Assembly: GCA_030765065.1 (NCBI GenBank)
Contig: CM060990.1
Span: 412,061,198 to 412,125,197 of the forward strand
DNA: 64,000 nucleotides
Direction of reading: 5' to 3'
Origin: Deroplatys truncata
Taxonomy: Eukaryota; Arthropoda; Insecta; Mantodea; Mantidae
Part shown: one piece after another, positions 26,887-64,000 of the stretch
Layout of the letters: each line of letters begins with the position of its first letter
How positions within the stretch are numbered: the stretch's first letter is position 1
Program-made: the position numbers and the translations under genes
Notes under the pieces: model-generated
Seen by the model: only the letters and a program-made list of their open reading frames with translations
Told to the model about the DNA's origin: nothing
The model's database searches: none

Positions 26887-26908
26887 TAAGAATAAGGGGA
26901 TAAACTTT

Positions 26909-29187: not shown

Positions 29188-29692
29188 ATGATGATGATGA
29201 TGATGATGATATGCGGTTTAAGGGCGCTAAACTGCTATGGTCATCAGCGCCCTTACAATGTATAAAAGATAGGGTCAAAATATAAAACAGGTAAAAGAAC
29301 CGCATAGTTAAAAACGGGACACAAACCCGCGATGTTCAAAAAGCTAAAACTAACAATAATATAACAATAACAATAATAACAATAACAACAATAACAATAA
29401 CAACAAGAACAACAAGAATAACAATAACAACAATAAGAACAATACAAAGTTCTGAAAAACCAACACACTAAAAGCATAGGCAATAAAAGATTAAAACGTG
29501 TCAGGAACTGTAGAATACGAGGGACATGAACGCCATATGTCCACTGGGGATAAGAGTTCCCATAAAAACAGACAGAATAAAAGTACTAAACTAACAGACG
29601 CCCAACGCATTAAATGCGCAGATTAAAATCACTGTCATGAATAAAACGTAAAACACATTCTACAGCACGCGTGTCGTCTGCCAAAACGTTGG

Positions 29693-33280: not shown

Positions 33281-33302
33281 TAAGAATAAGGGGATAAACT
33301 TT

Positions 33303-35960: not shown

Positions 35961-36369
35961 GATGATGATGATGATGATATGCGGCTTAAGGGCGCTAAAC
36001 TGCTGAGGTCATCAGCGCCCTTACAAGGTTTAAAATATAAAGTCAAAAAATAAAAGACAGGTAAAAAACCGCATAATTAAAAAACGGGACACAAACCCGC
36101 GATGTCAAAAAGCTAAAACTAACAATATAACAATAACAAATATAACAATAACAACAATAACAATAAAAACAATAATAACAATAACAACAATAATAAGAAC
36201 AAGACAAAGATCTGAAAAACAACACACTAAAAGCATAGGCAGTAAAGGATTAAAACGTGTCAGGAACTGTAGAATGCGAGGGACATGAGCGTCATATGTC
36301 CACTGGGGATAAGAGTTCCCATAAAAAACCGACAGGATAAAAGTACGAAGCTAACAGACGCTCAACGCA

Positions 36370-37577
36370 TTAAATGCGCAGATCAAAATCACTGGCATGA
36401 ATAAAACGTAAAACACATTCCACAGCATGCGTGTCGTCTGCCAAAACGTTGGCTAGGCCAACAGACAGACCCACACGAGCACGCAATGCAGCTAAAACCT
36501 GACACTCTGTTAAAATGTGACGCACCGTTAAGGGCACGTCACACTGCCCACAGAGTGGCGCGGGGTCACCACTCAGCAAATACTTATGACTAAAAATGCA
36601 ATGTCCGATACGAAGGCGTGTTAAAATTACCTCTTCCCGACGAGAAGCACGGGAAGAGGTAGCCCAGACTAACGGGAGAGGCTTAACCTCCCGCAACTTG
36701 TTCCCCCGGAGGGCCGTCCACTCATCGCTCCAAAGCGAGAGGATGCGGCGACGTAAAACAATAAACAAATCTGACGAGGGAACAACAGAGGTAAAACGTC
36801 TGGGTGATAAAATCGCCGACTTGGCAGCGACATCGGCAGACTCATTACCTGAGATGCCCACATGACCTGGAATCCACAAGAAGGAGACGCTGATGCCAGA
36901 GACATCAAGCGAGTGGAGCAGGTCATGAATGAAACGATGCAGGGGAAATGGTCGCTGGAGTAGGTGTCAGCGACGACGTTCCACTGAAGACGACGTGCAA
37001 GCTGGATTGAGCATATGGCAAGGTCCAGGTGAGAGAATGTACCGGAAGAATCAGAAATAAAAGTAGGTGCACCTGTATTGAGGATGGAAAGATTGAACTG
37101 ATAAAAAATGTCGGAAAGAAGATTTCCCCTCGCACAAGCCCTTGGCGAACCCCATAGTGGGTGATGGGCATTAAAATCTCCCAACAGAAGAAATGGTGTT
37201 GGGAGGGCGGACAGGAGAGCTCGAATGTCCGCGGGAGCGAGGGGAGACGATGGAGGTGAATATACAGAGCAAACAGAAAACAAAAAGCCGGGTAAGTGAA
37301 GGCGTACGGCAACAGCTTGCAAGTCGGATGTAAGTGTGACAGGTGTAAAATGAACGTCGTTACGCACTAAGAACATGACACCTCCATGAGCAGGAGTACC
37401 CTCCTCCGGTTCAAGGTCGTAGCGAACCGGAGTATATCCTCGGAGATCAAAAGGATCGTGAGGGCGAAGCTTAGTCTCCTGCAAACATACGACCATAGGC
37501 GAATGGGAACGCAATAAAAGTTGCAGTTCCGCCCTATGCGATCGTACACCACGTACATTCCAGGTCAGGATAGCCAT
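36370..37577 (-). pseudogene. ORF2 remnant of copy D: endonuclease joined to RNase H tail
   Basis: From the ATG at 37577 the endonuclease domain is intact (TWNVRG, CLQETKL, GDFNAHH, SDH). It then meets the deletion junction at 36931 and changes frame, running to a stop at 36669. The RNase H end survives in another frame (MWIPGHVGISGNESAD, 36879-36370) with the zinc knuckle and NLRI terminus. Encodes endonuclease but no reverse transcriptase. Confidence 0.88.
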
Positions 37578-37622
37578 TAAGAATAAGGGGATAAACTTTC
37601 TATTTAGAAGGGCGGCTTAAAA

Positions 37623-38828
37623 TTACCTTTTGTTTAAGCTTTGGGCTTGGGCTTTTGGTATGGAGTTGGTCAGACTCCATAGCTTCCTCGGAGGGAGGGC
37701 CCACGCGCTCAGTGCCAGAAACCGATTCAAGCGCCGTGAATCGGTTCTGGGTGGCGATGGGTGAAGGGTGCCGCTGAGCGCGGCTTGTCCCAGGACCATC
37801 CTGGGACAGCGACCTCCGAGGAGGAGTTTCTGCTTGGGCTTCTTTTCAACGGCTTGCGACTTCATTGACTTGGGACCAGGTTTATACGGCTTGGTAACTG
37901 TAGCCTTAATAGACGGCCGGATGGTAGTGGCGGTTAATCCAGTCAAGGTCCAGGTCTGAGTTTCGGCATCTACTCGTGGTACTGGCGAGGCAACAACAGA
38001 ACTAAATGTGCCAGATCGCAGGAGTGAAGGTTGGCGCGCATGGAAACGCCTCCGGGCTTCAGCGAAGGAGAGTTTTTCCTTTACCCGGATCTCCTGGATC
38101 GCCTTCTCGTCCAAATACCGCGGACAGTCGGCAAACGAAGCAGAATGTGACCCTTTACAATTAACGCAGACGGGGGCTGTTGAACAGGTACCTTCGTGTG
38201 AGGGCTGGCTACATGTTGCACAGATGTTAACGGCACTCTTACAGGAGACTTGCGTATGCCCAAAACGTTGGCATTTAAAACAACGCAGAGGTCTAGGAAT
38301 ATAAGGCCTCACAGAAATCCGTTCGTACCCTGCGGAAATGCTCGTGGGCAGATCGACGCCATCAAATGTAATAAACAGGGTACGAGTGGGTACCAATACG
38401 CCGTCGCGTTTGGCCTGCACTCGATGGACCGCTGTCACCTTCTGGTCTGCAAGATATTCTACCAGGTCCTCGTCCGATATACCATCGAGGCTATGGGTGG
38501 TAAGAACGCCTCGACAGGAATTCAATGTGCGGTGCTTCTCCACACGGATGGGATAGCCGTGGAGAAGCGTAGCGCGCAACAAGGTCTTACTTTGCTGATC
38601 GGATTTCGTTTGGGCTAATAAGGAACCATTCCGTAGACGAGTGCAGGACTGAACCGCACCAGCAATTGCATCAATTCCCTTTTGTATGATGAAAGGGTTC
38701 ACCTTCTCAAAACTTTGTCCTTCTTCGGTTCGTGAAATTACCAAGTAACAACCAGTTGTCGGTGGTGTCACTTCTGTTACATAAGCTTTTCGGCGCTTGT
38801 TAGTAGTAATGGAGGAAGGGTGCTCCAT
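37623..38828 (-). CDS. LINE ORF1 of copy D, alternate C-terminus
   Basis: 401 residues from the ATG at 38828. The N-terminal half carries many substitutions relative to copies A-C (for example TNKRRKAYVTEVTPPTTG), while the zinc-knuckle region is nearly identical. A deletion around 37827 removes part of the basic tail and shifts translation into a second open frame (LLGGRCPRMVLGQAALSGTL), so the C-terminus is unlike that of A-C. The three CCHC knuckles are intact. Confidence 0.85.
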   Translation of the reverse strand: MEHPSSITTNKRRKAYVTEVTPPTTGCYLVISRTEEGQSFEKVNPFIIQKGIDAIAGAVQSCTRLRNGSLLAQTKSDQQSKTLLRATLLHGYPIRVEKHRTLNSCRGVLTTHSLDGISDEDLVEYLADQKVTAVHRVQAKRDGVLVPTRTLFITFDGVDLPTSISAGYERISVRPYIPRPLRCFKCQRFGHTQVSCKSAVNICATCSQPSHEGTCSTAPVCVNCKGSHSASFADCPRYLDEKAIQEIRVKEKLSFAEARRRFHARQPSLLRSGTFSSVVASPVPRVDAETQTWTLTGLTATTIRPSIKATVTKPYKPGPKSMKSQAVEKKPKQKLLLGGRCPRMVLGQAALSGTLHPSPPRTDSRRLNRFLALSAWALPPRKLWSLTNSIPKAQAQSLNKR

Positions 38829-39464
38829 AGCGAAATAAATCCTCCACCATTGCAACCGTCTCCGACCTCGGCCTCTGACTTCTCGGGCGTTACCCCGGCT
38901 TGGGTGAGTGGCCTATCTATACCAGACTCACCCCAGGGTCACACCTCCCAGAACATAGACAGAGGGACCCAATCGCCGTCAGAAGTCAGCAGCTCATGCA
39001 ATGGCCCCCCCGCGGGACTGCAGTTGAACAGCGGATACGAACACATACCCTACATGACGACCCCGGGTGGTGGGGATGACGCCATTACCCACTCACCCAG
39101 CTGCGCACCAGTGCGCGGGTATCCGTCAGGCTGTGTCCACGGAGGATTTAAATAAAAAGATAAAAGAAACTAAAACTGTGTGGGCGTTTCGCACGCAAGG
39201 TAGGCCGGCGGGGAAGAAAAAGAGAGATATGCGAATGTCGTGGTGCGAAATGGCCGGAAAGTGATAAGGGAAGAAAGAAACGATGGTGAGGTGCGGTATG
39301 AATGGAATGTAAAGAACGCACGAGTGCCTACCTTGGGTCCACCGGTCACGAGAAGAACCCACCTCGACCGGATGGGGGTGAGAGGATGAATGTGGCGATG
39401 ATTGGCTCGGGAACCCCCGGGTGCGCCAAAAACCCGTACTCACATAAGGTGAGCCCCTGAGGGG
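38829..39464 (-). promoter_or_regulatory. 5' leader of LINE copy D
   Basis: Complete to the CCCCTCAGGGG terminus; its ORF1-proximal part carries the same extra divergence as the start of ORF1. Confidence 0.45.
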
Positions 39465-46570: not shown

Positions 46571-46760
46571 TTGCCCTGTGAATGAAATGTTTTATTAATC
46601 ATTTTATTTAGTACCATAATTACTCATGTACCGCACACACCTTTTTATAATAATTTTTTTTTTAAACTGGGGTGTGCATTTTATTTGGATTTGTTATGTT
46701 GGAAGCTTTGCTTTTGACTCACATAGTCCTATACATGTATTTCCGTATGTGAGCACACTA
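46571..46760. other. short AT-rich spacer, left flank of copy E1
   Basis: Ends with GTGAGCACACTA, the expected left member of the E1 target-site duplication. Its partner should lie beyond the window. Confidence 0.4.
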
Positions 46761-48373
46761 ATGATGATGATGATGATGATATGCGGTTTAAGGGCGCTAA
46801 ACTGCTGAGGTCATCAGCGCCCTTACAAGGTATAAAATATAGTCAAACTATAAAAGACAGGTAAAAGAACCGCATAATTAAAAAACGGGACACAAACCCG
46901 CAATGTCCAGAAAGCTAAAAATAACAATAATACAATAACAATAATAACAATAACAACAATAACAACAATAATAACAATACAAATATCCGAAAAACCAACA
47001 CACTAAAAGCATAGGCAATAAAAGATTAAAACGTGTCAAGGACTGTAGAATGCGAAGGACATGGGCGCCTTTTGTCCACTGGGTATTGGAGTCCCCATAA
47101 AAAATAGAAAGAATAAAATTACTACGCTAAAAGACGCTCATCGCATTAAATGCGCAGATTAAAATCACTGTCATGAATTAAACGTAAAACACATTCTACA
47201 GCACGCGTGTCGTCTGCCAAAACGTTGGCTAGGCCAACAGGCAGACCCACACGAACACCCAATGCAGCTAAAACCTGACACTCAGTTAAAATGTGACGCA
47301 CCGTTAAGGGCAGGTCACACTGCTGACACAGTGGAGCGGGATCACCACTGAGCAGGTAACTATGACTAAAACGGCAATGTCCAATTCGTAAACGGGCTAA
47401 AAGTACCTCTTCCCGACGTGAAGAACGAGAAGAGGTACCCCAGATTAACGGGAGAGGCTTAACCTCCCGCAACTTGTTCCCCCGGAGGGCCGTCCACTCA
47501 TCGCGCCAGCGCGAGGATGCGGCGACGTAAACTAACACACGAATCTGACGAGGGAACAGAGGTAAAAAATCTGGGTAATAAAATCGCCGATTTCGCAGCG
47601 GCGTCGGCAGACTCATTACCTGAGATGCCCACATGACCTGGAATCCACATGAAGGAGACGCTGATGCCAGAGACACCAAGCGAGTGGAGCAGGTCATGTA
47701 TGCGCTGTACGAGTGGGTGGTAATGGTACAGCGCAGTAATACTCTGGAGGGCACTCAGAGTCCGTACAAATAAAACAGTGCCGTAAGTCGTGCCGCTGAA
47801 TGTATAAAACGGATTGATAAATGCTAAAAAGTTCGGCGGTAAAAATTGAACATTCTCGAGGTAAACGAAAAGTAAAACTCTGTACACTAAAAACAAAGGC
47901 ACATCCTACTACAACATCAGTCTTAGACCCATCAGTATATATAAAATGACAGTCCCCGAACTGCGCCTGTAGTTCTAAAAGGCGGATCTAAGAACAGAAG
48001 CAGGGGTCGCATTTTTCGGCATCGACGTTAGCCCAAGGTGGATGTGGGCCTCAGCGCGCGACCATGGAGGAAAACGCGTTTCCCCTCGGGTAAGGGTCGG
48101 CGCTGGCGTAACATCCAAATACCGAAGTAGCAGTCGAAATCGAACCCCTGGAGGGAGCAATGCAGAGGAGCTAACTAAATATTGCCGATCAAGCGAATCC
48201 TCGTAAAATGTCCGGAAGGACGGGTGGTCAGGCAAGCTGGAGAGTCGACAGGCATAGCTGCACAAAAGCATCTCACGCCTGAAGGACAGCGGAGGCTCTG
48301 CAGCTTCAGCATAAAGGCTAAGAACAGGGCTGGTTGGAAAGGCCCCTGTAGCGACTCTTATGCCACGATGGTG
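46761..48373 (-). mobile_element. LINE copy E1, 3' part, interrupted by E2
   Basis: (CAT)n tail, conserved 3' fold, 3' UTR and the ORF2 C-terminal third (RNase H and zinc knuckle, here LCQQCDLPLTVRHILTEC), with small frameshifts. Sequence stops at the ORF2 position equivalent to HHRG (GCCACGATGGTG on the plus strand), where the tail of E2 begins. Bases 47024-47312 are almost identical to 48651-48940 of E2 (about two differences), then the copies diverge. E1 is the outermost layer of the nest visible here. Confidence 0.88.
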
Positions 48374-50530
48374 TGATAATGATGATATGCGGTTTAAGGG
48401 CGCTAAACTGCTGCGGTCATCAGCGCCCTTACAATGTGTAAAATATAAGGTCAAAATATAAAAGACAGGTAAAAAACCGCATAATTAAAAACGGGACACA
48501 AACCCGCGATGTCAAAAAAGTTAAAAATAACAATAGAATAACAATATCAATAATAACAATAACAATAAAAACAATAACAATAATAACAATAACAACAATA
48601 ATAACAATAAATATATCTGAAAAACCAACACACTAAAAGCATAGGCAATAAAAGATTAAAACGTGTCAAGGACTGTAGAATGCGAAGGACATGGGCGCCT
48701 TTTGTCCACTGGGTATTGGAGTCCCCATAAAAAATAGAGAGAATAAAATTACTACGCTAAAAGACGCTCATCGCATTAAATGCGCAGATTAAAATCACTG
48801 TCATGAATTAAACGTAAAACACATTCTACAGCACGCGTGTCGTCTGCCAAAACGTTGGCTAGGCCAACAGGCAGACCCACACGAACACCCAATGCAGCTA
48901 AAACCTGACACTCAGTTAAAATGTGACGCACCGTTAAGGGCACGTCACACTGCCCACAGAGTGGTGCGGGGTCCCCACTGAGCAAATACCTATGACTAAA
49001 AACACAATGTCCAATCCGTAGACGAGCTAAAATTACCTCTTCCCGACGACAAGAACGAGAAGAGGTACCCCAGAGCAACGGGAAAGGCTTAACCTCCCGC
49101 AACTTGTTCCCCCGGAGGGCCGTCCACTCATCGCGCCAGCGCGAGAGGATGCGGCGACGTAAAATAACACACGAATCTGACGAGGGAACAACAGAAGTAA
49201 AAAATCTGGGTAATTAAATCGCCGATTTCGCAGCGGCGTCGGCAGACTCATTACCTGAGATGCCCACATGACCTGGAATCCACATGAAGGACACGCTGAT
49301 GCCAGAGACACCAAGCGAGTGGAGCAGGTCATGTATGCGCTGTACGAGTGGGTGGTAATGGTACAGCGCATGAATAGCCTGAAGGGCACTCAGAGAGTCC
49401 GTACAAATAAAACAGTGCCGTAAGTCGTGCCGCTGGATGTGTGAAACAGATTGATAAATGCTAAAAAGTTCGGCGGTAAAAATTGAACATTGTCCAGGTA
49501 AACGAAAGTAAAACTCTGTACACCAAAAACAAAGGCACATCCTACTCCAACATCAGTCTTAGACCCATCAGTATATATAAAATGACAGTCCCCGAACTGC
49601 GCCTGTAGTTCTAAAAAGGCGGATCTAAGAACAGAAGCAGGCGTCGCATTTTTCGGCATCGACGTTAGCCCAAGGTGGATGTGGGCCTCAGCGAGCGACC
49701 ATGGAGGAAAGCGCGTTTCCCCCCGGGTAAGGGCCGGCGCTGGCGTAACGTCCAAATGCCGAAGTAGCAGTCGAAATCGAACCCCTGGAGGGAGCAATGC
49801 AGAGGAGCTAACGAAATATTGGCGATCAAGCGAATCCTCGTAAAATACATCGAAGGACGGGTGGTTAGGCAAGCTTGAGAGTCGACAAGCATAGCTGCAC
49901 AAAAGCATCTCACGCCGGAAGGACAGCGAAGGCTCTGCAGCTTCTGCGTACAGACTGGGTACAGGGCTATTTGGAAAGGCCCCTGTAGCGACTCTTATGC
50001 CACGATGGTGAGTGGCATTCAATCGACGTAACACAGATGGACGTGCCGACGAATAAACAATACACCCGTAATCAAGCTTGGATCGGACCAAAGAGCGATA
50101 AAGGCGAAGAAGGACGGTCCGATCAGCTCCCCAGGATGTGCCACTTAAAACACGTAAAATATTAAGAGAACGGTCACACTATGCTTTTAAAAAGGAAACG
50201 TGCGAGGTCCAACACAACTTTCTATCAAAATCAACCCCAAAAATTTCGCCTCGTCTGCAAACGGAAGTATCCCTGGCCCAAGATGGAGAGAGGGCGGAGG
50301 GAAATACTTCCGGCGCCAAAAGTTGATGCAGACGGATTTCTCGGCGGAGAAATTAAAGCCGTTGGCGTTACTCCAGGCGTAGAGACGGTCGATACAGCTC
50401 TGGAGACGGCGTTCGAGTAGACAGGTCCGCCGTGAAGTGCAATAAATAGCGAAATCGTCAACAAAAAGGGACGATGAAATGCCAGGTGGAATACAATCAA
50501 CAATGGGGTTGATAGCAATCGCAAAAAGTG
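48374..50530 (-). mobile_element. LINE copy E2, 3' part, inserted in E1 and interrupted by E3/F
   Basis: Starts with an imperfect tail (TGATAATGATGAT), then the 3' UTR and ORF2 from the C-terminus back into the RT. Frame pieces lie at 48776-49102, 49214-49540 and 49390-50091. RNase H shows YTDGSKTDVGVGCAFVFG, the E/G-type variant. It stops at GCAAAAAGTGTGA, where the E3/F tail begins. Contains several frameshifts. Confidence 0.87.
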
Positions 50531-51080
50531 TGATGATGATGATGATGATGATGATATGCGGCTTAAGGCCGCTAAACTGCTGAGGTCATCAGCGCCCTTA
50601 CAATGTATAAAATATAAAGTCAAAATATAAAAACAGGTAAAAGAACCGCATAATTAAAAAACGGGACGTAAACCCGGGATGTCCAAAAGGCTAAAAATAA
50701 CAATAAGATAACAATAACAATAATAATCACAATAACAACAATAATAACAATAACAACAATAAAAGAAATAACAACAATAATAACAATACAAATATCTGAA
50801 AAAACCAACACACTAAAAGCATAGGCAATAAACGATTAAAACGTGTCAAGAACTATAGAATGCGAGGGACATGAGCGCCATATGTCCACTGGGGATTAGA
50901 GTCCCCATAAAAACTGACAGAATAAAAGTATTAAGTTAAAAGACGCTCAACGCATTAAAGGCGCAGAGTAAAATCACTATCATGAATAAAACGTAAAACA
51001 CATTCTACAGCACGCGTGTCGTCTGCCAAAACGTTGGCTAGGCCAATAGGCAGACCCACACGGGCACGCAATGCACCTAA
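50531..51080 (-). mobile_element. LINE copy E3/F, 3' end piece
   Basis: (CAT)n tail, 3' UTR and the last codons of ORF2. The inner 3' stem has one mismatch here (AAGGCCGCT). It ends at GCAATGCACCTAA (51068-51080), which reappears with two changes at 56902-56914. The copy therefore continues as F after the E4 insertion. Confidence 0.85.
51068..51080. repeat. target-site duplication of LINE copy E4 (partner 56902-56914)
   Basis: GCAATGCACCTAA against GCAATTCAGCTAA, 11 of 13 identical. The target is the ORF2 C-terminal coding region of another copy of the same LINE. Confidence 0.8.
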
Positions 51081-51460
51081 ATGATGATGATGATGATGAG
51101 ATGCGGTTTAAGGGCGCTAAACTACTAAGGTCATCAGCGCCCTTACAATGTATAAAATATAAAGTCAAAAGGATAAAATAACCGCATAATTAAAAAACGG
51201 GACAGAAACCCGCGATGTCCAAAAAAGGCTAAAAATAACAATAATATAACAATAACAATAATAATAACAATAACATAAATAACAACAATAATAACAATAC
51301 AAATATCTGAAAAACCAACACACTAAAATCATGGTCACTAAAAGAATAAAACGTGTCAAGAACTGTAGAATGCAAGGAACATGAGCGCCTTATGTCTGGG
51401 GAGAAGAGCCCCATTAAAACTAACAATATAAAATCAAACAGCTAAAAGGCGCTCAGCGCA

Positions 51461-54400
51461 TCAAATGCGACGGCTAAAACCAATGTCAGTGATAAAACGT
51501 AAAAGACATTCTACAGCATGCGCGTCGTCTGCCAACAAGTTGGCTAGGCCAACAGGCAGACCCACGCGAACGCGCAGTGGAGCTAAAACTTGACACTCGG
51601 TTAAAATGTGACGGACCGTTAAGGGCACGTCACACTGACCACACAGAGGTGCGGGATCACCACTTAACAGGTATCTATGACTAAAAAGGCAATGTCCGAT
51701 ACGAAGGCGTGTTAAAAGTACCTCTTCCCGACGAGAAGCACGGGAAGAGGTAGCCCAGACTAGCGGAAGAGGTTTAACCTCCCGCAACTTGTTCCACTCA
51801 TCGCACCAGCGCGAGAGGATGCGGCGACGTAAAATAACACACGAATCTGACGAGGGAACAACAGAAGAAAAAAATCTGGGTAATAAAATCGCCGATTTCG
51901 CAGCGGCGTCGGCCGACTCATTCCCTGAGATACCCACATGACCTGGAATCCACATAAAAGAGACGCTGATGCCAGAGGCACCAAGCGAATGGAGCAGGTC
52001 ATGAATGCTCTGTACGAGGGGGTGGTAAGTGTACAGCGCGCTAATACTCTGAAGGGCACTCAGAGAGTCCGAACAAACACCACAACGCCGTAAGAATTGC
52101 CGCTGAATGTATAAAACACATTGATAGATACTAAAAAGTTCGGCGGTATAAATCGAACATTGCCCGGGTAAACGAAAAGTAAAACTATGCGCACCTAAAA
52201 CAAAGGCACATCCTACTCCAACATCAGTCTTAGACCCATCAGTATAAATAAAATGACAGTATCCGAATGTTGCCTGAAGTGCTAAAAATGCGGATCTAAG
52301 GACTGAAGCAGGGGTCTCATTCTTCGGCATCGACGTTAGCCCAAGGTGGATGTGGGCCTCAGCGCGCGACCATGGAGGAAAGCGCGTTTCCCCTCGGGTA
52401 AGGGCCAGCGCTGGCGTAACGTCCAAATGCCGAAGTAGCAGTCGAAATCGAACCCCTGGAGGGAGCAATTCAGAGGAACTAACGAAATATTGGCGATCAA
52501 GCGAATCCTCGTAAAATACATCGAAGGACGGGTGGTTAGGCAAGCTTGAGAGTCGACAAGCATAGCTGCACAAAAGCATCTCACGCCGGAAGGACAGCGG
52601 AGGCTCTGCAGCGTCTGCGTACAGACTGGGTACAGGGCTAGTTGGAAAGGCCCCTGTAGCGACTTTTATGCCACGATGGTGAATGGCACTCAATCGACGT
52701 AACACAGATGGACGTGCCGACGAATAAACAATACACCCGTAATCATGCTTGGATCGGACCAAAGAGCGATAAAGGCGAAGAAGGACGGTCCGATCAGCTC
52801 CCCAGGATGTGCCACTTAAAACACGTAAAATATTAAGAGAACGGTCACACTTTGCTTTTAAAAAGGAAACGTGCGAGGTCCAACACAACTTCCTGTCAAA
52901 AATCAACCCCAAAAATTTCGCCTCGTCTGCAAACGGAAGTATCCCTGGCCCAAGATGGAGAGAGGGCGGAGGGAAATACTTCCGGCGCCAAAAGTTGATG
53001 CAGACGGATTTCTCGGCGGAGAAATTAAAGCCGTTGGCGTTACTCCAGGCGTAGAGACGGTCGATACAGCTCTGGAGACGGCGTTCGAGTAGACAGGTCC
53101 GCCGTGAAGTGCAATAAATAGCGAAATCGTCAACAAAAAGGGACGATGAAATGCCAGGTGGAATACAATCAACAATGGGGTTGATAGCAATCGCAAAAAG
53201 TGTGACACCGAGTACAGAGCCCTGCGGTACTCCGTTCTCTGGAATAAAACGAAGAGATAAAACCGAGCCCACACGTACACGAAAGACGCGGTCCGTCATA
53301 AACTCCCGAAGAAATATGGGAAGACGACCGCGGATATTCCAATCGTGAAGTGTACGTAAAATGCCGCCCCTCCAACAAGTGTCATAAGCTTTCTCCAGGT
53401 CAAAAAATACAGCCACGGTTTGACACTTTCTCAGAAATCCATTCATAATATGCGTCGACAAGGACACCAGATGGTCGACGGTACAGCGATAGCGACGAAA
53501 CCGTGCGGGGTTCGCTAGAAGTTTCTGAGACTCAAGCCACCATGTCCACCGCCCGTTGATCATGCGCTCCATCACCTTGCAAATGCAACTGGTGAGGGAG
53601 ATAGGGCGGTAGCTGGAAGGTAGTTGGCGATCCTTCCCAGGCTTAAGTATAGGGACAATGGTGGCTTCGCGCCAAACGGAAGGAAAAATGCCGTCTTGCC
53701 AAATGTGGTTATGGACCTGTAAGAGAAAGAGTTTACTGTCGGCTGAAAGGTTCTTTAACATCAGGACATGAATGCCGTCCGGCCCAGGAGCGGAGTGCCG
53801 AGAGCAATGAAGAGCGTGCTCCAGCTCCCTCATTGTGGATTGTTCGTTATAGCATTCATCATTACCAGACCGAAAAGTATATGATGCGGAATCCAGCCGG
53901 TCTTTAATAGAGCGAAAGCCGGCGGAATAGTGGTCTGAACTGGAAACCACCTCAAAGGCAGCACCCAGAGTGTTAGCGATGGCAGCCGGATCCACTATGG
54001 TGGCATTAGAAACCTGAAGGCCAGAAACAGTACAATGTGACACTTTACCTGAGAAGCGACGAAGTTTATCCCAAACAACGGATGAAGGCGTAAAACGATT
54101 AAAAGACTCGACAAAACGAGCCCAAGATGCCTTCTTGCTATCCTGAATAATGCGACGAGCCCTGGCGCGCGATTGTTTAAAAGTCACCAAATTATCAAGT
54201 GTAGGGTGTCGCCGAAACACCCTATGTGCAGTCCTACGGGCACGAACGGCGTCCCGACAATCATCATTCCACCACGGAACAGGTGGCCGCCGAGGTTGGG
54301 AGGATGAACGGGGTATTGCGCGTTCGGCGGCAGAGAAAATAATAGACGTAAGGTGCTGCACAAGTTGGTTAATGTCGGAGAAGGGCTGGTCGTCAAAATC

Positions 54401-55131
54401 CACGAGGCTGGAATACAAGCTCCAGTCGGCTTTGGCGAATATCCAGGTAGGTACTCTGGAATGCTGTACGTGGTGCGACAGAAGAGAAACGATGCAGGGG
54501 TAATGGTCGCTGGAGTAGGTGTCAGCGACGACGTTCCACTGAAGACGTTGAGCAAGCTGGAGTGAGCAAATGGCTAGGTCCAGGAGAGAGAACGTACCAG
54601 AGGAATCAGAAAGAAAAGTAGGTGCACCTGTATTGAGGATGGAAAGATTAAACTGATAAAAATGTCGGAAAGAAGAGTTCCCCTCGCACAAGCCCTTGGC
54701 GAACCCCACAGTGGGTGATGGGCATTAAAATCTCCCAACAGAAGAAATGGTGTTGGGAGAGCGGACAGGAGAGCTCGAATGTCCGCGGGAGCGAGGGGAG
54801 ACAATGGAGGTGAATACACAGAGCAAACAGAAAACAAAAAGCCGGGTAATTGAAGGCGAACGGCAACAGCTTGCAAGTCAGATGTAAGTGTGACAGGTTT
54901 AAAATGAACGTCGTTACGCACTAACAACATGACACCTCCATGAGCAGGAGCACCCTCCTCCGGTTCAAGATCGTAGCGAACCGGAGTATATCCGCGGAGA
55001 TCAAAAGGATCGTGAGGGCGAAGCTTAGTCTCCTGCAAACATACGACCATAGGCGAATGGGAACGCAATAAAAGTTGCAGTTCCGCCCTATGCGATCGTA
55101 CACCACGTACATTCCAGGTCAGGATAACCAT
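51461..55131 (-). pseudogene. LINE ORF2 of copy E4, one frameshift in the endonuclease
   Basis: The ATG at 55131 opens the endonuclease (TWNVRG, CLQETKL, GDFNAHH). A one-base loss in an A-run at about 54660 (five A where copy A has six) shifts the frame after about residue 155. The rest, from 54709 to 51461, is a single long frame with the endonuclease SDH, RT (FFDLEKAYD, GVPQGSVLG, FVDD), RNase H (YTDGSKTDVG) and zinc knuckle. An in-frame 15-bp loss removes five residues after DEW near the C-terminus, and QCGFRRYRS is altered to a PARFRRYRC form. Confidence 0.88.
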
Positions 55132-55177
55132 TAAGAAAAAAGGGAATAAACTGTCTATTTAGAAGGGCGGCTTAAAA

Positions 55178-56436
55178 TTACCTTTTGTTTAACCTTTGGG
55201 CTCGGGTTTTTTGTATGGAGTTGGTCAGACTCCATAGCTTCCTCGGAGGAAGGGCCCACGCGCTCAGTGCCAGAAACCGATTCAAGCGCCGTGAATCGGT
55301 TCTGGGTGGCGATGGGTGCCGCTGAGCGCGGCTTGTCCCAGGACCTTCCTGGGACAGCGACCTCCGAGGAGGAGAAGGTGAACTTTTGTTACCGCGCGCA
55401 CGCGGAGGGTCTTTCAAAAAATCTTCCCTACGTAGTTTCTGCTTGGGTTTCTTTTCAGCGGCTTGCGACTTCATTGACTTTGGACCAGGTTTATAGGGCT
55501 TGGTAACAGTAGCTTTAATAGACGGCCGGATGGTAGTGGCGGTTAATCCAGTCAAGCTCCAGGTCTGAGTTTCGGCATCTACTCGTGATACTGGCGAGGC
55601 AACAACAGAACTAAATGTGCCAGATCGCAGGAGTGAAGGTTGGCGCGCATGGAAACGCCTCCGGGCTTCGGCGAAGGAGAGTTTCTCCTTTACCCGGATC
55701 TCCTGGATCGCCTTCTCGTCCAGATACCGTGGACAGTTGGCAAACGAAGCAGAATGTGACCCTTTACAATTAACGCAGACGGGGGCTGTTGAACAGGCAC
55801 CTTCGTGTGAGGGCTGGCTACATGTTGCACAGATGTTAACGGCACTCTTACATGAGACTTCCGTATGCCGAAAACGTTGGCACTTAAAACAACGCAGAGG
55901 TCTAGGAATATAAGGCCTCACAGAAATACGTTCGTACCCTGCAGAGATGCTCGTAGGCAGATCGACGCCATCAAATGTTAGAAACAGGGTACGAGTGGGT
56001 ATCAATACGCCGTCGCGTTTGGCCTGCACTCGATGAACCGCTGTCACCTTCTGGTCTGCAAGATATTCGACGAGGTCCTCGTCCGAGATTCCATCGAGGC
56101 TATGCGTGGTGACAACGCCTCTACAAGAATTTAAGGTGCGGTGCTTCTCAACACGGATAGGATAACCGTGGAGAAGCGTGGCGCTCAACAAGGACTTACT
56201 TTGGTCTCGGATTTGCTTTGAACTACCAACGAACCATTACGAAGCCGAGTGCAGGAAAGAACCGGACCAGCAATTGAGTCAATGCCCTTCTGGATAATAA
56301 AAGGGTTCACCTTCTCGAATGATTGTCCCTCCTCTGTACGGGTAATCACTAAGTAACAACCAGCTGTTGGCGGTGCTACTTCTGTTAGTAAAGTTTTTCG
56401 GCGCTTGTTGTTTACAATGGAGAAAGGGTGCTCCAT
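55178..56436 (-). pseudogene. LINE ORF1 of copy E4, frameshifted
   Basis: Starts at the ATG at 56436 (MEHPFSI). A two-base loss near 56200 shifts the frame, and the remainder (56191-55178) encodes the rest of the RRM-like part and the three zinc knuckles, the first altered from FGHTQVSC to FRHTEVSC. A 7-bp deletion near 55315 then moves translation into the same alternate C-terminal frame seen in copy D. Confidence 0.85.
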
Positions 56437-56914
56437 AGCGAAAAAAAATCCTCCACCATTGCAACCGTCTCCGACCTCGGGCTCTGACTTCCCGGGCGTT
56501 ACCCCGGCTTGGGTGAGTGGCCTATGTATACCTAGCTCACCCCAGGGTCACACCTCCCAGAACATAGACAGAGGGACCCAATCGCCTTCTGAAGCCAGCA
56601 ACTCATGCAATGGCCCCCCCGCGGGACTGCAGTTGAACAGCGGATACGAACAACAACCCTACATGACGACCCCGGGTGGTGGGGATGACGCCATTACTCA
56701 CTCACCCAGCTGCGCACGCGGTGCGCGGGTATCCGTCAGGCTGTGTCCACGGAGGATTTAAATAAAAAGATAAAAGAAACTAAAACTGTGTGGGCATTTC
56801 GCACGCAAGGTAGGCCGGCGGGGAAGAAAAAGAGAGATATGCGAATGTCGTGGCGCGAAATGGCCGGAAAGTGATAAAGGAAGAAAGAAACGACGGTAAG
56901 GGCAATTCAGCTAA

Positions 56915-59900
56915 AACCTGACACTCTGTTAAAATATGTCGCACCGTTAAGGGCACGTCCCACTGCCCACAGAGTGGTGCGGGGTCACCACTGAGCAAAT
57001 ACCTATGACTAAAAACACAATGTCCAAACCGTAAACGAGCTAAAATTACTTCTTCCCTACGACACGAACGAGAAGAGGTACCCCAGATCAACGGGAAAGG
57101 CTTAACCTCCCGCAACTTGTTCCCCCGGAGGGCCGTCCACTCATCGCGCCAGCGCGAGAGGATGCGGCGACGTAAAATAACACACGAATCTGACGAGGGA
57201 ACAACAGAAGTAAAAAATCTGGGTAATAAAATCGCCGATTTCGCAGCGGCGTCGGCAGACTCATTACCTGAGATGCCCACATGACCTGGAATCCACACGA
57301 AGGACACGCTGATGCCAGAGACACCAAGCGAGTGGAGCAGGTCATGTATGCGCTGTACGAGTGGGTTGTAATGGTACAGCGCATGAATAGCCTGAAGGGC
57401 ACTCAGAGAGTCCGTACAAATAAAACAGTGCCGTAAGTCGTGCCGCTGGATGTGTGAAACAGATTGATAAATGCTAAAAAGTTCGGCGGTAAAAATTGAA
57501 CATTGTCCAGGTAAACGAAAAGTAAAACTCTGCACACCAAAAACAAAGGCACATCCTACTCCAACATCAGTCTTAGACCCATCAGTATATATAAAATGAC
57601 AGTCCCCGAACTGCGCCTGTAGTTCTAAAAAGGCGGATCTAAGAACAGAAGAAGGGGTCGCATTTTTCGGCATCGATGTTAGCCCAAGGTGGATGTGGCA
57701 TCACCGCGCGACCATGGAGGAAAACGCGTTTCCCCTCGTGTAAGGGCCGGCGCTGGCGGAACGTCCAAATGCCGAAGTAGCAGTCGAAATCGAACCCCTG
57801 GAGGGAGCAAAGCAGAGGAGCTAACTAAATATTGCCGGTCAAGTGAATCCTCGTAAAATGCCGCGAAGGACGGGTGGTCAGGCAAGCTGGAGAGTCGACA
57901 GGCATAGCTACATAAGAGCATCTCACGCCTGAAAGACAGCGGAGGTTCTGCAGCCTCTGCGTAAAGACTGGGCACGGGGCTAGTTGGAAAAGCCCCTGTA
58001 GCGACTCTAATACCACGATGATGAATGGGATTCAAACGACGTAACACAGATGGACGTGCCGACGAATAAACAATACACCCGTAATCAAGTTTGGATCGGA
58101 CCAAAGAGCGATAAAGCGAAGAAGGACGGTCCGATCAGCTCCCCAGGATGTGCCACTTAAAACACGTAAAAGATTAAGAGAACGGGCACACTTTGCTTTT
58201 AAAAAGGAAACGTGCGAGGCCCAACACAACTTCCTATCAAAAATCAACCCCAAAAATTTCGCCTCGTCTGCAAACGGAAGTATCCCTGGCCCAAGATGGA
58301 GAGAGGGCGGAGGGAAATACTTCCGGCGCCAGACGTTGATGCAGACGGATTTCTCGGCGGAGAAATAAAATCCGTTGGCGTTACTCCAGGCGTAGAGACG
58401 GTCGATACAGCTCTGGAGACGGCGTTCGAGTAGACAGGTCCGCCGTGAAGTGCAATAAATAGCGAAATCGTCAACAAAAAGGGACGATGAAATGCCAGGT
58501 GGAATACAATCAAAAATGGGGTTGATAGCAATCGCAAAAAGTGTGACACTGAGTACAGAGCACTGCGGTACTCCGTTCTCTTGAATAAAACGACGAGATA
58601 AAACCGAGCCCACACGTACACGAAAGACGCGGTCCGTCATAAACTCCCGAAGAAATATGGGAAGACGACCGCGGATATTCCAATCGTGAAGTGTACGTAA
58701 AATGCCGCCCCTCCAACAAGTGTCATAAGCTTTCTCCAGGTCAAACAATACAGCCACGGTTTGACACTTTCTCAGAAATCCATTCATAATATGCGTCGAC
58801 AAGGACACCAGATGGTCGACGGTAGAGCGATAGCGACGAAACCCGCACTGAGCGTTCGCTAGAAGTTTCTGAGACTCAAGCCACAATGTCAACCGCCCGT
58901 TGATCATGCGCTCCATCACCTTGCAAATCCAACTGGTGAGGGAGATAGGGCGGTAGCTGGAAGGTAGTTGGCGATCCTTCCCAGGCTTAAGTATAGGGAC
59001 AATGGTGGCTTCGCGCCAAACGGAAGGAAAAATGCCGTCTTGCCAAATACGGTTATAGACCTGTAAGAGAAATAATTTACCGTCGGCTGAAAGGCTCTTT
59101 AACATCAGGACATGAATGCCGACCGGCCCAGGAGCGGAGTGCCGAGAGCAATGAAGAGCGTGCTCCAGCTCCCTCATTGAGAATAGTACGTTATAGCATT
59201 CAGCATTAGCACACCGAAAAGTATATGATGCGGAATCCAGCCGGTCTTTAATAGAGCGAAACCCGGCGGAATAATGGTCTGAATTGGAAACCGCCTCAAA
59301 GGCAGCACCCAGAGTGTTAGCGATGGCAGCCGGATCCACTATGGTGGCATTAGAAACCTGAAGGCCAGAAACAGTACAATGTGACACTTTACCTGAGAAG
59401 CGACGAAGTTTATCCCAAACAACGGATGAAGGCGTAAAACGATTAAAAGACTCGACAAAACGAGCCCAAGATGCCTTCTTGCTATCCTGAATAATGCGAC
59501 GAGCCCTGGCGCGCGATTGTTTAAAAGTCACCAAATTATCAAGTGTAGGGTGTCGCCGAAACACCCTAAGTGCAGTCCTACGGGCACGAACGGCGTCCCG
59601 ACAATCCTCGTTCCACCACGGAACAGGTGGGCGCCGAGGTTGGGAGGATGAACGGGGTATTGCGCGCTCGGCGGCGGAGAAAAGAATAGACGTAAGGTGC
59701 TGCACGACTTGGTTAATGTCGGAGAAGGGCTGGTCGTCAAAATGCACGAGGCTGAAATACAAGCTCCAGTCGGCTTTTGCGAATATCCAGGTAGGTACTC
59801 TGGAATGCTGTACGTGGTGCGACAGAAGAGAAACGATGCAGGGGTAATGGTCGCTGGAGTAGGTGTCAGCGACGACGTTCCACTGAAGACGATGAGCAAG

Positions 59901-59990
59901 CTGGAGTGAGCAAATGGCAAGGTCCAGGTGAGAGAATGTACCAGAATAATCAGAAAGAAAAGTAGGTGCACCTGTATTAAGAATGGAAAG
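56915..59990 (-). mobile_element. LINE copy E3/F, main body, cut at G
   Basis: Continuation of the copy whose 3' end is at 50531-51080. It holds ORF2 from the zinc-knuckle region (LCGQWDVPLTVRHILTEC, second Cys changed to Trp) through RNase H (57673-56780 frame), a middle segment (58104-57679) and RT (59762-58032, with GVPQCSVLS in motif B and FVDD) into the endonuclease. It ends inside the endonuclease region at GAATGGAAAG, where the tail of G begins. Several frameshifts. Confidence 0.86.
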
Positions 59991-60409
59991 ATGATGATGA
60001 TGATGATGATATGCGGTTTAAGGGCGCTAAACTGCTATGGTCATCAGCGCCCTTACAATGTATAAAAGATAGGGTCAAAATATAAAACAGGTAAAAGAAC
60101 CGCATATTTAAAAACGGGACACAAACCCGCGATGTTCAAAAAGCTAAAACTAACAATAATATAACAATAACAAATATAACAATAACAAATATAACAATAA
60201 CAACAATAATAACAATAACAACAATAATAACAATAAGAACAAGACAAATATCAGAAAAACTAACACACTAAAAGCATAGGCAGTAAAGGATTAAAACGTG
60301 TCAGGAACTGTAGAATGCAAGGGACATGAGCGCCATATGTCCACTGGGGATAAGAGTTCCCATAAAAACAGACAGAATAAAAGTACTAAGCTAACAGACG
60401 CCCAACGCA

Positions 60410-62962
60410 TTAAATGCGCAGATTAAAATCACTGTCATGAATAAAACATAAAACACATTCTACAGCACGCGTGTCGTCTGCCAAAACGGTGGCTAGGCCA
60501 ACAGGCAGACCCACACGAGCACGCAATGCAGCTAAAACCTGACACTCTGTTAAAATGTGACGCACCGTTAAGGGCACGCCACAGTGCCCACAGAGTGGTG
60601 CGGGGTCACCACTGAGCAAATACCTATGACTAAAAACACAATGTCCAATCCGTAGACGAGCTAAAATTACCTCTTCCCGACGACAAGAACGAGAAGAGGT
60701 ACCCCAGAGCAACGGGAAAGGCTTAACCTCCCGCAACTTGTTCCCCCGGAGGGCCGTCCACTCATCGCGCCAGCGCGAGAGGATGCGGCGACGTAAAATA
60801 ACACACGAATCTGACGAGGGAACAACAGAAGTAAAAAATCTGGGTAATAAAATCGCCGATTTCGCAGCGGCGTCGGCAGACTCATTACCTGAGATGCCCA
60901 CATGACCTGGAATCCACATGAAGGACACGCTGATGCCAGAGACACCAAGCGAGTGGAGCAGGTCATGTATGCGCTGTACGAGTGGGTGGTAATGGTACAG
61001 CGCATGAATAGTCTGAAGGCCACTCAGAGAGTCCGTACAAATAAAACAGTGCCGTAAGTCGTGCCGCTGAATGTATAAAACAGATTGATAAATGCTAAAA
61101 AGTTCGGCGGTAAAAATTGAACATTGTCGAGGTAAACGAAAAGTAAAACTCTGTACACCAAAAACAAAGGCACATCCTACTCCAACATCAGTCTTAGACC
61201 CATCAGTATATATAAAATGACAGTCCCCGAACTGCGCCTGTAGTTCTAAAAAGGCGGATCTAAGAACAGAAGCAGGGGTCACATTTTTCGGCATCGACGT
61301 TAGCCCAAGGTGGATGTGGGCCTCAGCGCGCGACCATGGAGGAAAGCGCGTTTCCCCTCGGGTAAGGGCCGGCGCTGGCGTAACGTCCAAATGCCGAAGT
61401 AGCAGTCGAAATCGAACCCCTGGAGGGAGCAATGCAGAGGAGCTAACGAAATATTGGCGATCAAGCGAATCGTCGTAAAATACATCGAAGGTCGGGTGGT
61501 TAGGCAAGCTTGAGAGTCGACAAGCATAGCTGCACAAAAGCATCTCACGCCGGAAGGACAGCGGAGGCTCTGCAGCTTCTGCGTACAGACTGGGTACAGG
61601 GTTAGTTGGAAAGGCCCCTGTAGCGACTCTTATGCCACGATGGTGAATGGCATTCAATCGACGTAACACAGATGGACGTGCCGACGAATAAACAATACAC
61701 CCGTAATCAAGCTTGGATCGGACCAAAGAGCGATAAAGGCGAAGAAGGACGGTCCGATCAGCTCCCCAGGATGTGCCACTTAAAACACGTAAAAGATTAA
61801 GAGAACGGTCACACTTTGCTTTTAAAAAGGAAACGTGCGAGGTCCAACACAACTTCCTATCAAAAATCAACCCCAAAAATTTCGCCTCGTCTGCAAACGG
61901 AAGTATCCCTGGCCCAAGATGGAGAGAGGGCGGAGGGAAATACTTCCGGCGCCAAACGTTGATGCAAACGGATTTCTCGGCGGAGAAATTAAAGCCGTTG
62001 GCGTTACTCCAGGCGTAGAGACGGTCGATACAGCTCTGGATACGGCGTTCGAGTAGACAGGTCCGCCGTGAACTGCAATAAATAGCGAAATCGTCAACAA
62101 AAAGGGACGATGAAATGCCAGGTGGAATACAATCAACAATGGGGTTGATAGCAACCGCAAAAAGTGTGACACTGAGTACAGAGCCCTGCGGTACTCCGTT
62201 CTCTTGAATAAAACGACGAGATAAAACCGAGCCCACACGCACACGAAAGACGCGGTCCGTCATGAACTCCCGAAGAAATATGGGAAGACGACCGCGAATA
62301 TTCCATGCGTGAAGTGTACGTAAAATGCCGCCCCTCCAACAAGTGTCATAAGCTTTCTCCAGGTCAAAAAATACAGCCACGGTTTGACACTTTCTCAGAA
62401 ATCCATTCATAATATGCGTCGACAAGGACACCAGATGGTCGACGGTAGAGCGATAGCGACGAAACCCGCACTGAGCGTTCGCTAGAAGTTTCTGAGACTC
62501 AAGCCACCATGTCAACCGCCCGTTGATCATGCGCTCCATCACCTTGCAAATGCAACTGGTGAGGGAGATAGGACGGTAGCTGGAAGGTAGTTGGCGATCC
62601 TTCCCAGGCTTAAGTATAGGGACAATAGTGGCTTCGCGCCAAACGGAAGGAAAAATGCCGTCTTGCCAAATACGTTTATAGACCTGTAAGAGAAATAGTT
62701 TACTGTCGGCTGAAAGGTTCTTTAACATCAGGACATGAATGCCGTCCGGCCCAGGAGCGGAGTGCCGAGAGCAATGAAGAGCGTGCTCCAGCTCCCTCAT
62801 TGTGAATAGTTCGTTATAGCATTCATCATTAGCAGACCGAAAAGTATATGATGCGGAATCCAGCCGTTCTTTAATAGAGCGAAAGCCGGTGGAATAATGG
62901 TCTGAACTGGATACCGCCTCAAAGGCAGCACCCAGAGTGTTAGCGATGGCAGCCGGATCCAC
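60410..62962 (-). pseudogene. ORF2 of copy G, RT-RNase H-knuckle frame
   Basis: 850-residue open frame holding RT (APGPDG, FFDLEKAYD, GVPQGSVLS, FVDD), RNase H (YTDGSKTDVG, GNESAD) and the CX2CX7HX4C knuckle, ending NLRI. It is separated from the upstream part (63385-62981) by a stop at about 62980 (Q to stop in the SDLQVSN segment), and the endonuclease is mostly absent because the copy is cut at 63613. Not functional as a complete replicase. Confidence 0.85.
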
Positions 62963-62980
62963 TATGGTGGCATTAGAAAC

Positions 62981-63594
62981 CTAAAGATCAGAAACAGTAC
63001 AATGTGACACTTTACCTGAGAAGCGACGAAGTTTATCCCAAACAACGGATGAAGGCGTAAAACGATTAAAAGACTCGACAAAACGAGCCCAAGATGCCTT
63101 CTTGCTATCCTGAATAATGCGACGAGCCCTGGCGCGCGATTGTTTAAAAGTCACCAAATTATCAAGTGCAGGGTGTCGCCGAAACACCCTAAGTGCAGTC
63201 CTACGGGCACGAACGGCGTCCCGACAATCCTCGTTCCACCACGGAACAGGTGGGCGCCGAGGTTGGGAGGATGAACGGGGTATTGCGCGCTCGGCGGCGG
63301 AGAAAAGAATAGACGTAAGGTGCTGCACGACTTGGTTAATGTCGGAGAAGGGCTGGTCGTCAAAATGCACGAGGCTGAAATACAAGCTCCAGTCGGCTTT
63401 TGCGAATATCCAGGTAGGTACTCTGGAATGCTGTACGTGGTGCGACAGAAGAGAAACGATGCAGGGGTAATGGTCGCTGGAGTAGGTGTCAGCGACGACG
63501 TTCCACTGAAGACGATGAGCAAGCTGGAGTGAGCAAATGGCAAGGTCCAGGTGAGAGAATGTACCAGAATAATCAGAAAGAAAAGTAGGTGCAC
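62981..63594 (-). pseudogene. ORF2 of copy G, linker and endonuclease remainder
   Basis: The frame 63385-62981 encodes the linker between endonuclease and RT (PRRPPVPWWNEDCRDAVRAR). The remaining endonuclease sequence reaches 63613 and is nearly identical to that of F, including the unusual MYFSLVHFDD start of the open frame. Confidence 0.8.
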
Positions 63595-63613
63595 CTGTAT
63601 TAAGAATGGAAAG

Positions 63614-64000
63614 ATGATGATGATGATGATGATGATGATATGCGGTTTAAGGGCGCTAAACTGCTATGGTCATCAGCGCCCTTACAATGTATAAAAGATA
63701 GGGTCAAAATATAAAACAGGTAAAAGAACCGCATATTTAAAAACGGGACACAAACCCGCGATGTTCAAAAAGCTAAAACTAACAATAATATAACAATAAC
63801 AACAATAATAACAATAAGAACAAGACAAATATCAGAAAAACTAACACACTAAAAGCATAGGCAGTAAAGGATTAAAACGTGTCAGGAACTGTAGAATGCA
63901 AGGGACATGAGCGCCATATGTCCACTGGGGATAAGAGTTCCCATAAAAACAGACAGAATAAAAGTACTAAGCTAACAGACGCCCAACGCATTAAATGCGC
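63614..64000 (-). mobile_element. LINE copy H, 3' end, continues beyond the window
   Basis: Tail, 3' fold and 3' UTR nearly identical to G. The AAC/AAT simple repeat is about 48 bp shorter. The position relative to the preceding LINE body is the same as for G, so H is the original partner or a duplicate of G. Confidence 0.85.

What the first reader, a model, noticed from the sequence alone, without database searches (positions are those of the whole stretch)
46761..64000. Same-family, same-orientation nested LINE insertions (at least four layers)
Junctions at 48374, 50531, 51081 and 59991 each join the body of one copy directly to the ATG-repeat tail of another. The E3/F copy can be followed across E4 because the 13-bp site at 51068-51080 recurs at 56902-56914 and the ORF2 sequence resumes there. 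The simplest reading is E1 containing E2 containing E3/F, which contains both E4 and G. This predicts that the remainders of H, E3/F, E2 and E1 follow in that order beyond 64000. Repeated same-orientation self-insertion may mean the family prefers its own sequence, or that the locus tolerates insertions.
Basis: partly seen in the sequence, partly recalled or inferred. Interest (0 to 1): 0.8.

Follow-up and report, generated by a model that had tools for sequence, protein, structure and literature searches.

The report
Same-direction LINE pile-up, remade by recombination
A stretch of a large eukaryotic chromosome is packed with copies of one jumping gene that all point the same way; some really did jump into one another, others are products of recombination, and the shared direction recurs elsewhere in the genome and calls for an explanation.

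Summary
The junctions are real. The element is an endonuclease-RT-RNase H LINE on the minus strand, and E4 is a true same-orientation insertion in E3/F. I read 120 kb past the window: H runs on as a full-length copy to about 69627, then comes unrelated DNA. No E3/F, E2 or E1 remainder appears. G is not an insertion: at 159 of 159 diagnostic sites it is a one-switch chimera of H and F, as unequal crossing-over gives. A further exchange or deletion probably removed the outer remainders. Clean same-orientation nests lie nearby. The larger result is orientation. In 224 kb, 53 of 54 LINE segments, and all 16 insertions with target-duplication evidence, point one way. Across the genome sample, neighbouring copies under 100 kb apart share strand in 33 of 35 cases, fading to about half beyond 1 Mb. 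Of 40 similarity-picked copies, 16 sit in family or related sequence, 14 of them same-orientation, against 1 of 40 arbitrarily placed stretches. Nesting, recombination and a region-wide strand bias at insertion explain the locus. What sets the strand is open; a directional process such as replication or transcription is my leading guess.

The parts
46749..46760 (.). host target sequence left of E1's tail
   Evidence: occurs once in the 224 kb read; no partner next to the family's 5' end in the assembly at exact match
46761..48373 (-). E1: 3' part of a LINE copy (copy-B ref 4-1650), oldest-looking layer
   Evidence: best non-self relative in the genome 94%
48374..50530 (-). E2: 3' part (ref 3-2174), read as inserted in E1; its own far side is missing
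   Evidence: best non-self relative 98%
50531..51080 (-). E3: 3' end of the E3/F copy (ref 1-534)
51068..51080 (.). target-site duplication of E4, left copy
   Evidence: 11 of 13 bases match the right copy
51081..56901 (-). E4: nearly full-length LINE (ref 4-5880), same-orientation insertion inside E3/F
   Evidence: host resumes at ref 538
56902..56914 (.). target-site duplication of E4, right copy
56902..59990 (-). F: continuation of E3/F up to ref about 3620, where H inserted
59991..63613 (-). G: tandem duplicate made by unequal crossing-over; its 3' part is H, its 5' part is F; not an insertion
   Evidence: 140 of 140 diagnostic sites match H, then 19 of 19 match F, one switch; windowed identities
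62988..63199 (.). interval holding the crossover that made G
   Evidence: last H-type and first F-type diagnostic sites
63614..64000 (-). H: start of a full-length copy that runs to about 69627 outside the window; no target duplication, so its two ends come from different events
35960..39464 (-). D: internally deleted copy without target duplication, another likely recombinant
9236..15296 (-). A: full-length copy, 12-bp target duplication, independent insertion
22783..28835 (-). B: full-length copy used as reference, 11-12-bp target duplication
29188..35223 (-). C: full-length copy, 10-bp target duplication

Best explanation
The locus is a long cluster of one APE-type LINE family built by ordinary target-primed insertion, always in one direction, into both foreign DNA and older copies of itself, and then remodelled by homologous exchange. 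E2 went into E1, E3/F into E2, and E4 and H into E3/F. An unequal crossover between F and H duplicated 3.6 kb and made G. An exchange or deletion between H and another same-direction copy removed the far sides of E3/F, E2 and E1 (the partner is inferred, not shown). The shared direction is not special to this locus: in the genome sample, copies within about 300 kb of each other mostly share strand. I think the strand is chosen at insertion by something directional in the region, most likely passing replication forks or one-way transcription exposing one strand to the nick. Shown: nesting, the chimera, missing remainders, one-way orientation here and local strand agreement in the sample. Inferred: order of events, the deletion partner, the cause of the strand bias. 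My probability for the anatomy and history is about 0.85; for a directional regional process as cause of the bias, about 0.4.
For: H ends full-length and is followed by non-LINE DNA, with no resumed host copy. G is a one-switch chimera. In the 224 kb plus L026, 13 insertions have 9-14-bp exact target duplications (W and L026 were read by eye, and W scores only 7 in the trimmed windows) and 3 have weaker ones (X1 7 exact, U 13 of 14, E4 11 of 13); all 16 are minus. Mispaired flanks reached at most 7 bp, in 3 of 342 pairings. Host resumes after K, M, N, P1 and in L026. Same-strand neighbours in the genome sample: 33 of 35 under 100 kb, 59 of 67 under 300 kb; outside C16:411-414 Mb 27 of 29 and 53 of 61; shuffled strands were as high as the observed 67 of 85 (under 1 Mb, own region excluded) in 0 of 5000 trials. 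Of 16 sampled copies lying in family or related sequence, 14 are same-orientation. Sampled copies not so nested also agree with the nearest neighbour: 4 of 4 under 300 kb, 6 of 6 under 1 Mb. A related family (66% DNA identity over about 900 bp) agrees with the nearest family-1 copy within 300 kb in 9 of 10 cases.
Against: Two other LINE-like sequences gave no clear support for a region-wide cue: 1 of 4 and 3 of 3 within 300 kb, 6 of 10 and 5 of 8 within 1 Mb, their own query places included. Other transposon-like ORFs in the 224 kb, named by eye only, lie on both strands. By the exact-match rule X1, U and E4 do not exceed the mispaired control. Hits are the 40 best per query, not a random sample of several thousand copies. 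No replication, transcription or small-RNA data were available. The partner copy that removed the remainders was not found. The range read to the right is 120 kb plus one 10-kb stretch at +200 kb.
Confidence: 0.7

Rival explanations
1. Pure nesting as first proposed: E1 contains E2, which contains E3/F, which contains E4 and G, with all remainders further right.
For: All body|tail junctions are real, and outer layers look older by best non-self relative: E1 94%, E2 98%, G/H 99%; E4 is 97%.
Against: No remainders in 120 kb to the right. H is full-length and lacks a target duplication. G is a chimera. 0 exact matches for the family's 5' end plus E1's target site.
Confidence: 0.05
2. Self-guided insertion: the element's particle is drawn to existing copies (by shared RNA, chromatin or protein marks) and cuts them on a fixed strand, so clusters grow from a founder and inherit its direction.
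For: 16 of 40 sampled copies lie in family or related-family DNA, against 1 of 40 arbitrarily placed stretches. Two nested sites recur exactly (E4 and L059; N and L031), P about 0.002, noticed after the fact.
Against: In the 224 kb many insertions are in foreign DNA with the same strand. A 66%-identical family shares the orientation. The second sample is nested in only 3 of 27. Upstream target sequence does not predict the strand (1.06 to 1).
Confidence: 0.2
3. One-strand piRNA clusters: these regions are long one-way piRNA precursors, and selection or insertion bias keeps copies antisense to the transcript, as Gypsy elements are in Drosophila flamenco-like loci.
For: Domain sizes of 0.1-1 Mb and a family-specific strand bias resemble passages read in PMC10643416: clusters of 227-1,085 kb, and among LTR elements a bias driven by Gypsy only.
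Against: Dozens of insertions in one cluster are hard to explain by selection, since one copy would suffice (inference). No small-RNA data.
Confidence: 0.2
4. Loss of inverted pairs: insertion is unbiased, but opposite-facing neighbours are deleted, as proposed for human Alu pairs up to 350 kb apart.
For: Known precedent; abstract and sections 6 and 8 of PMC3215922 read. Copies without target duplication, likely recombinants, occur here (D, H, R).
Against: The bias is seen in copies about 99% identical to the query copy (14 of 16 nested), which leaves little time for purging (inference). The long-range Alu imbalance is described as a small difference seen with over 800,000 elements.
Confidence: 0.12
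5. Telomere-type array: each copy was added onto an eroded end of the previous one, as HeT-A and TART do.
For: Truncated copies joined head to tail in one direction look alike (PMC5537684, passages).
Against: The locus is at 412 Mb of a 707-Mb contig. Copies have two-sided target duplications and hosts resume after inserts.
Confidence: 0.02
6. Segmental duplication or assembly error produced the repeated same-direction copies.
For: G is a local duplicate, and one 899-bp 99% duplicate lies to the left.
Against: Non-LINE flanks in the 224 kb show only short, mostly diverged repeats, the longest 1,330 bp and inverted. The 40 sampled flanks elsewhere match each other only where both lie in family or related-family sequence. 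G shows one clean switch, as a real crossover would.
Confidence: 0.05

Closest known systems
APE-type non-LTR retrotransposons with RNase H (I-like LINEs; clade recalled, not tested)
   Same: APE endonuclease, reverse transcriptase and RNase H domains, simple-repeat tail, 9-14-bp target duplications, 5' truncation
   Different: strong same-strand clustering over hundreds of kb, measured here, is not something I know as a feature of the group (recall)
Drosophila telomeric HeT-A/TART/TAHRE arrays (PMC5537684, passages)
   Same: head-to-tail, one direction, truncated copies
   Different: chromosome-internal here, with target duplications and true nesting
Unistrand piRNA clusters such as flamenco (PMC10643416, passages)
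   Same: long region, one transposon group biased to one strand
   Different: no small-RNA evidence here; a LINE family rather than Gypsy; many clusters
Alu direct/inverted pair imbalance (PMC3215922, abstract and sections 6 and 8)
   Same: direct pairs outnumber inverted pairs out to about 350 kb; at spacers of 24 bp or less the inverted:direct ratio is 0.076, which the authors say may reflect an orientational insertion preference
   Different: the long-range Alu imbalance is described as small; here 33 of 35 neighbours 10-100 kb apart agree
Fork-directed bacterial transposons such as Tn7/TnsE and IS200/IS605 (PMC5371812, passages)
   Same: insertion strand follows a directional host process (replication)
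   Different: different machinery; no replication data here

Membership tests
APE-type LINE with RNase H | AP-like endonuclease plus reverse transcriptase in one ORF | tested here: met
   PF03372, PF14529 and PF00078 in window:9658-13347
APE-type LINE with RNase H | RNase H domain | tested here: met
   PF00075, E 2.7e-8
APE-type LINE with RNase H | ORF1 with CCHC knuckles | tested here: inconclusive
   CCHC-like motifs visible by eye in the 438-aa ORF, but no Pfam match at 0.001
APE-type LINE with RNase H | target-site duplications | tested here: met
   9-14 bp exact in 13 insertions, two of them read by eye
APE-type LINE with RNase H | placement in a named clade by RT phylogeny | not tested
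   no reference set was used
Pure nested insertion stack E1[E2[E3/F[E4][G]]] | remainders follow in reverse order with target duplications | tested here: not met
   120 kb read to the right; exact pattern 0 matches
Telomeric retrotransposon array | located at a chromosome end | tested here: not met
   412 Mb of a 707-Mb contig
Telomeric retrotransposon array | copies added end to end without target duplication | tested here: not met
   two-sided duplications
Unistrand piRNA cluster | one-strand transposon content | tested here: inconclusive
   met for this family; other transposon-like ORFs, named by eye, lie on both strands
Unistrand piRNA cluster | one-strand piRNAs from the region | not testable with these tools
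   no small-RNA data

The most novel reading that the evidence does not exclude
A LINE family whose insertion strand is set region by region: domains of roughly 0.1-1 Mb with sharp switches (among sampled copies C16:369.28-370.34 Mb all plus, 370.51-370.98 all minus, 371.43-372.77 all plus), in which new copies land in one direction whether in foreign DNA or in older copies. The LINE pattern would then be a genomic record of a directional process such as germline replication-fork direction, or of self-guided insertion.
Probability: 0.45. Interest if true: 0.82.

Novelty: new variant of a known kind. Interest (0 to 1): 0.6.

Why it matters
LINE insertion strand is usually treated as close to random locally (recall). 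A family whose neighbours agree in strand over hundreds of kilobases makes it possible to ask what chooses the strand at insertion. It could give a sequence-only readout of germline replication or transcription direction in very large genomes. The G chimera also shows how same-direction clusters are remodelled by recombination, which can mimic extra nesting layers when sequence is read by eye.

Tried and rejected
Strand bias from target sequence: a weight matrix from 35 non-nested sites, using 14 bases upstream of the tail, scored same and opposite strands of the element almost equally (1.06 to 1). It lacks the downstream half of the target, and in at least 3 of the 11 local sites the extracted bases are tail or tail-like repeat, which weakens it.

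Second tandem duplication at 140-162 kb: two junctions at ref 3284 looked like another G, but one search found no near-identical segments there (98.5% over 300 bases or more). P1 has its own target duplication. Recurrent insertion or an old duplication remains possible.

Query-strand artefact in the search tool: repeating the first query on the other strand returned the same places with strands swapped, so that is not the cause of the strand pattern.

E1's lost right end: exact pattern search gave 0 matches; a decayed or 5'-truncated end would be missed.

Other LINE-like sequences as controls: too few neighbours to decide. Their identity as LINEs was judged by eye; a Pfam call that included them failed, and one search covered only the two window ORFs of one of them, one with a sub-cut-off RNase H match.

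Literature: listings showed no report of region-wide LINE strand domains. Only open-licence full text is held.

Rows dropped: 18 fragment rows listed beyond the first 40 rows in the seven family-1 searches; hits less than 10 kb apart on the same strand were merged (279 to 250). In the flank sample one opposite-strand hit (L053) was dropped as a simple repeat, and likewise L104 among the control stretches; with low-complexity filtering on, L053 disappears but L104 still appears. Of 32 junctions mapped, 28 were used for the recurrence count; Q1, S3, L032 and L042 were left out.
Full report
What was given.

What is there. The window lies at C16:412061198-412125197 of a 4.29-Gb assembly whose contig C16 is 707 Mb. 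The copies are on the minus strand, so their 3' tails lie at the left as ATG repeats. ORF2 carries endonuclease, reverse transcriptase and RNase H domains. Against copy B the segments are E1 ref 4-1650, E2 3-2174, E3 1-534, E4 4-5880, F 538-3620, G 3-3620 and H from 1 to the 5' end.

The continuation. I read 120 kb to the right and 40 kb to the left. H runs to about 69627 and ends at the family's usual 5' end; unrelated DNA follows. H has no target duplication: the bases before its tail and after its 5' end do not match. E1's left target occurs nowhere else in the 224 kb, and an exact pattern of the family's 5' end plus that target has 0 matches in the assembly. The predicted E3/F, E2 and E1 remainders are therefore absent from the range read. 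Since H's two ends belong to different insertions, an exchange or deletion between H and another same-direction copy is the simplest cause. That partner is inferred.

G is a recombination product. F and G break at the same element position and share private variants there. At sites where F and H differ, G matches H at 140 of 140 (ref 30-2993) and then F at 19 of 19 (ref 3204-3610), with one switch. Unequal crossing-over between the 3' part of F and H gives exactly this. In 200-base windows G and H are 99.5-100% identical up to the switch and G and F 99.5-100% after it; G and H differ in length in the simple repeat near the 3' end. The event looks recent.

True nests. E4 interrupts E3/F; its 13-bp duplication now matches at 11 of 13 bases. 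K and M both sit in one host copy at 108-126 kb, with 14- and 12-bp duplications and resumed host. N and P1 sit in another (after P1 the host runs only about 60 bp, read by eye). L026, 200 kb to the right of the window, holds a full copy inside another, with an 11-bp duplication. All are same-orientation. L025, which starts at 411925198 on the left, has no family hit. Mispaired flanks as a control never shared more than 7 bases, and 7 in only 3 of 342 pairings. By that exact-match rule X1 (7), U (6) and E4 (5) do not stand out; U and E4 rest on 13 of 14 and 11 of 13 bases with mismatches. W scores 7 in the trimmed windows and 14 when the flanks printed are read.

One direction nearby. Family or related sequence covers 135,680 of 224,000 bases. 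Of 54 segments longer than 60 bases found with copy B, 53 are on the minus strand; the other is a 65-bp match in the simple-repeat part of the element. Eighteen LINE tails with four or more ATG units are on the same strand and none on the other. Sixteen insertions, counting L026, have target-duplication evidence, thirteen of them strong; all are minus. Several are in foreign DNA, for example copy I inside what looks by eye like a mariner transposase gene. Non-LINE flanks show only short repeats, so these are independent insertions. Other transposon-like ORFs in the region, named by eye and not searched, lie on both strands.

Genome sample. Seven queries from seven copies (first 40 rows each) gave 279 distinct places, 250 after merging. 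Strands overall were 135 minus and 115 plus. Consecutive copies under 100 kb apart agree in 33 of 35 cases and under 300 kb in 59 of 67; outside C16:411-414 Mb the counts are 27 of 29 and 53 of 61. For all pairs the agreement is 51 of 53 at 10-100 kb, 50 of 57 at 100-300 kb, 75 of 123 at 0.3-1 Mb, 96 of 197 at 1-3 Mb, and between 48% and 57% in the wider bins. With the own region left out, 67 of 85 neighbours under 1 Mb agree; shuffling strands within contigs reached that in 0 of 5000 trials. The sample is the best-matching copies per query, not all copies.

Other families. A relative with 66% DNA identity agrees with the nearest family-1 copy in 3 of 4 cases within 100 kb, 9 of 10 within 300 kb and 13 of 15 within 1 Mb; one of these is the place that supplied the query. 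Two other LINE-like sequences without detected DNA likeness to family 1 gave 1 of 4 and 3 of 3 within 300 kb, and 6 of 10 and 5 of 8 within 1 Mb, including their own query places in this region. This hints that the cue is shared by related elements but does not settle it.

Self-insertion. For 40 copies picked by similarity (39, one; flanks), the 3' flank lies in family or related-family DNA, at or within about 45 bases of the tail, in 16; 14 of these are same-orientation, 2 opposite. Two of the 14 are in related sequence of about 70% identity. A second set of 27 (20, and L002-L008, of which L006 is copy J of this region) gave 3, all same-orientation, plus L002, where a short related fragment lies about 130 bp away. 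Of 40 arbitrarily placed 600-bp stretches, 20 of them on C16, 1 held family sequence. Two pairs of nested sites use the same base of the element (E4 and L059; N and L031) and one pair lies 3 bp apart; with 28 sites, chance gives two exact pairs in about 0.2% and three pairs within 3 bp in about 1.1% of trials. This was noticed after the fact. Within the 224 kb the density of the family is high enough that nesting need not mean attraction.

Mechanism. Insertion by target-primed reverse transcription, nesting, and homologous exchange account for the locus. What fixes the strand is open. Purging of opposite pairs is unlikely to be the main cause because very similar, probably young, copies show the bias. 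A founder effect by self-guidance does not by itself explain same-strand insertions into foreign DNA. I favour a directional regional process at insertion (replication or transcription), at about 0.4, with one-strand piRNA loci and self-guidance at about 0.2 each.

Literature. I saw the abstract and sections 6 and 8 of PMC3215922, passages of PMC10643416, PMC5371812, PMC5537684 and PMC12051294 (not relevant), and search listings otherwise. PMC3215922 reports, besides the weak long-range imbalance, a strong one (inverted:direct 0.076) for Alu pairs 24 bp or less apart and suggests a possible orientational insertion preference, which is the nearest precedent for the nested part. The searches named under Tried and rejected showed no report of region-wide LINE strand domains; that covers only the open-licence library.

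Noticed in passing
L021:3087-3984 and L021:6163-7060 (window coordinates -6913 to -6016 and -3837 to -2940): An 899-bp direct duplication, 99.0% identical, in non-LINE DNA left of the window.
   Followed up: no
window coordinates 71289-71744 and 77801-78091 (L009, L010): What looks by eye like a mariner transposase gene is interrupted by LINE copy I and resumes on the far side, with a 12-bp duplication.
   Followed up: partly
contig C16 (707 Mb of 4290 Mb): It holds 107 of 279 family-1 hits and 30 of 40 hits of the older LINE-like sequence at window 21900-22780, well above its 16% of the assembly; possibly a sex chromosome (inference).
   Followed up: no
window coordinates 149148-155568 (L017, L018): Two insertions, P1 and Q1, use the same element position (ref 3284) in neighbouring hosts.
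   Followed up: partly
G000 C16:369.28-372.77 Mb: Sampled family-1 copies switch strand in blocks: plus, then minus, then plus.
   Followed up: partly
window 35648-35662: An (ATG)5 repeat that is not followed by the LINE's 3' end, so not a LINE tail.
   Followed up: no
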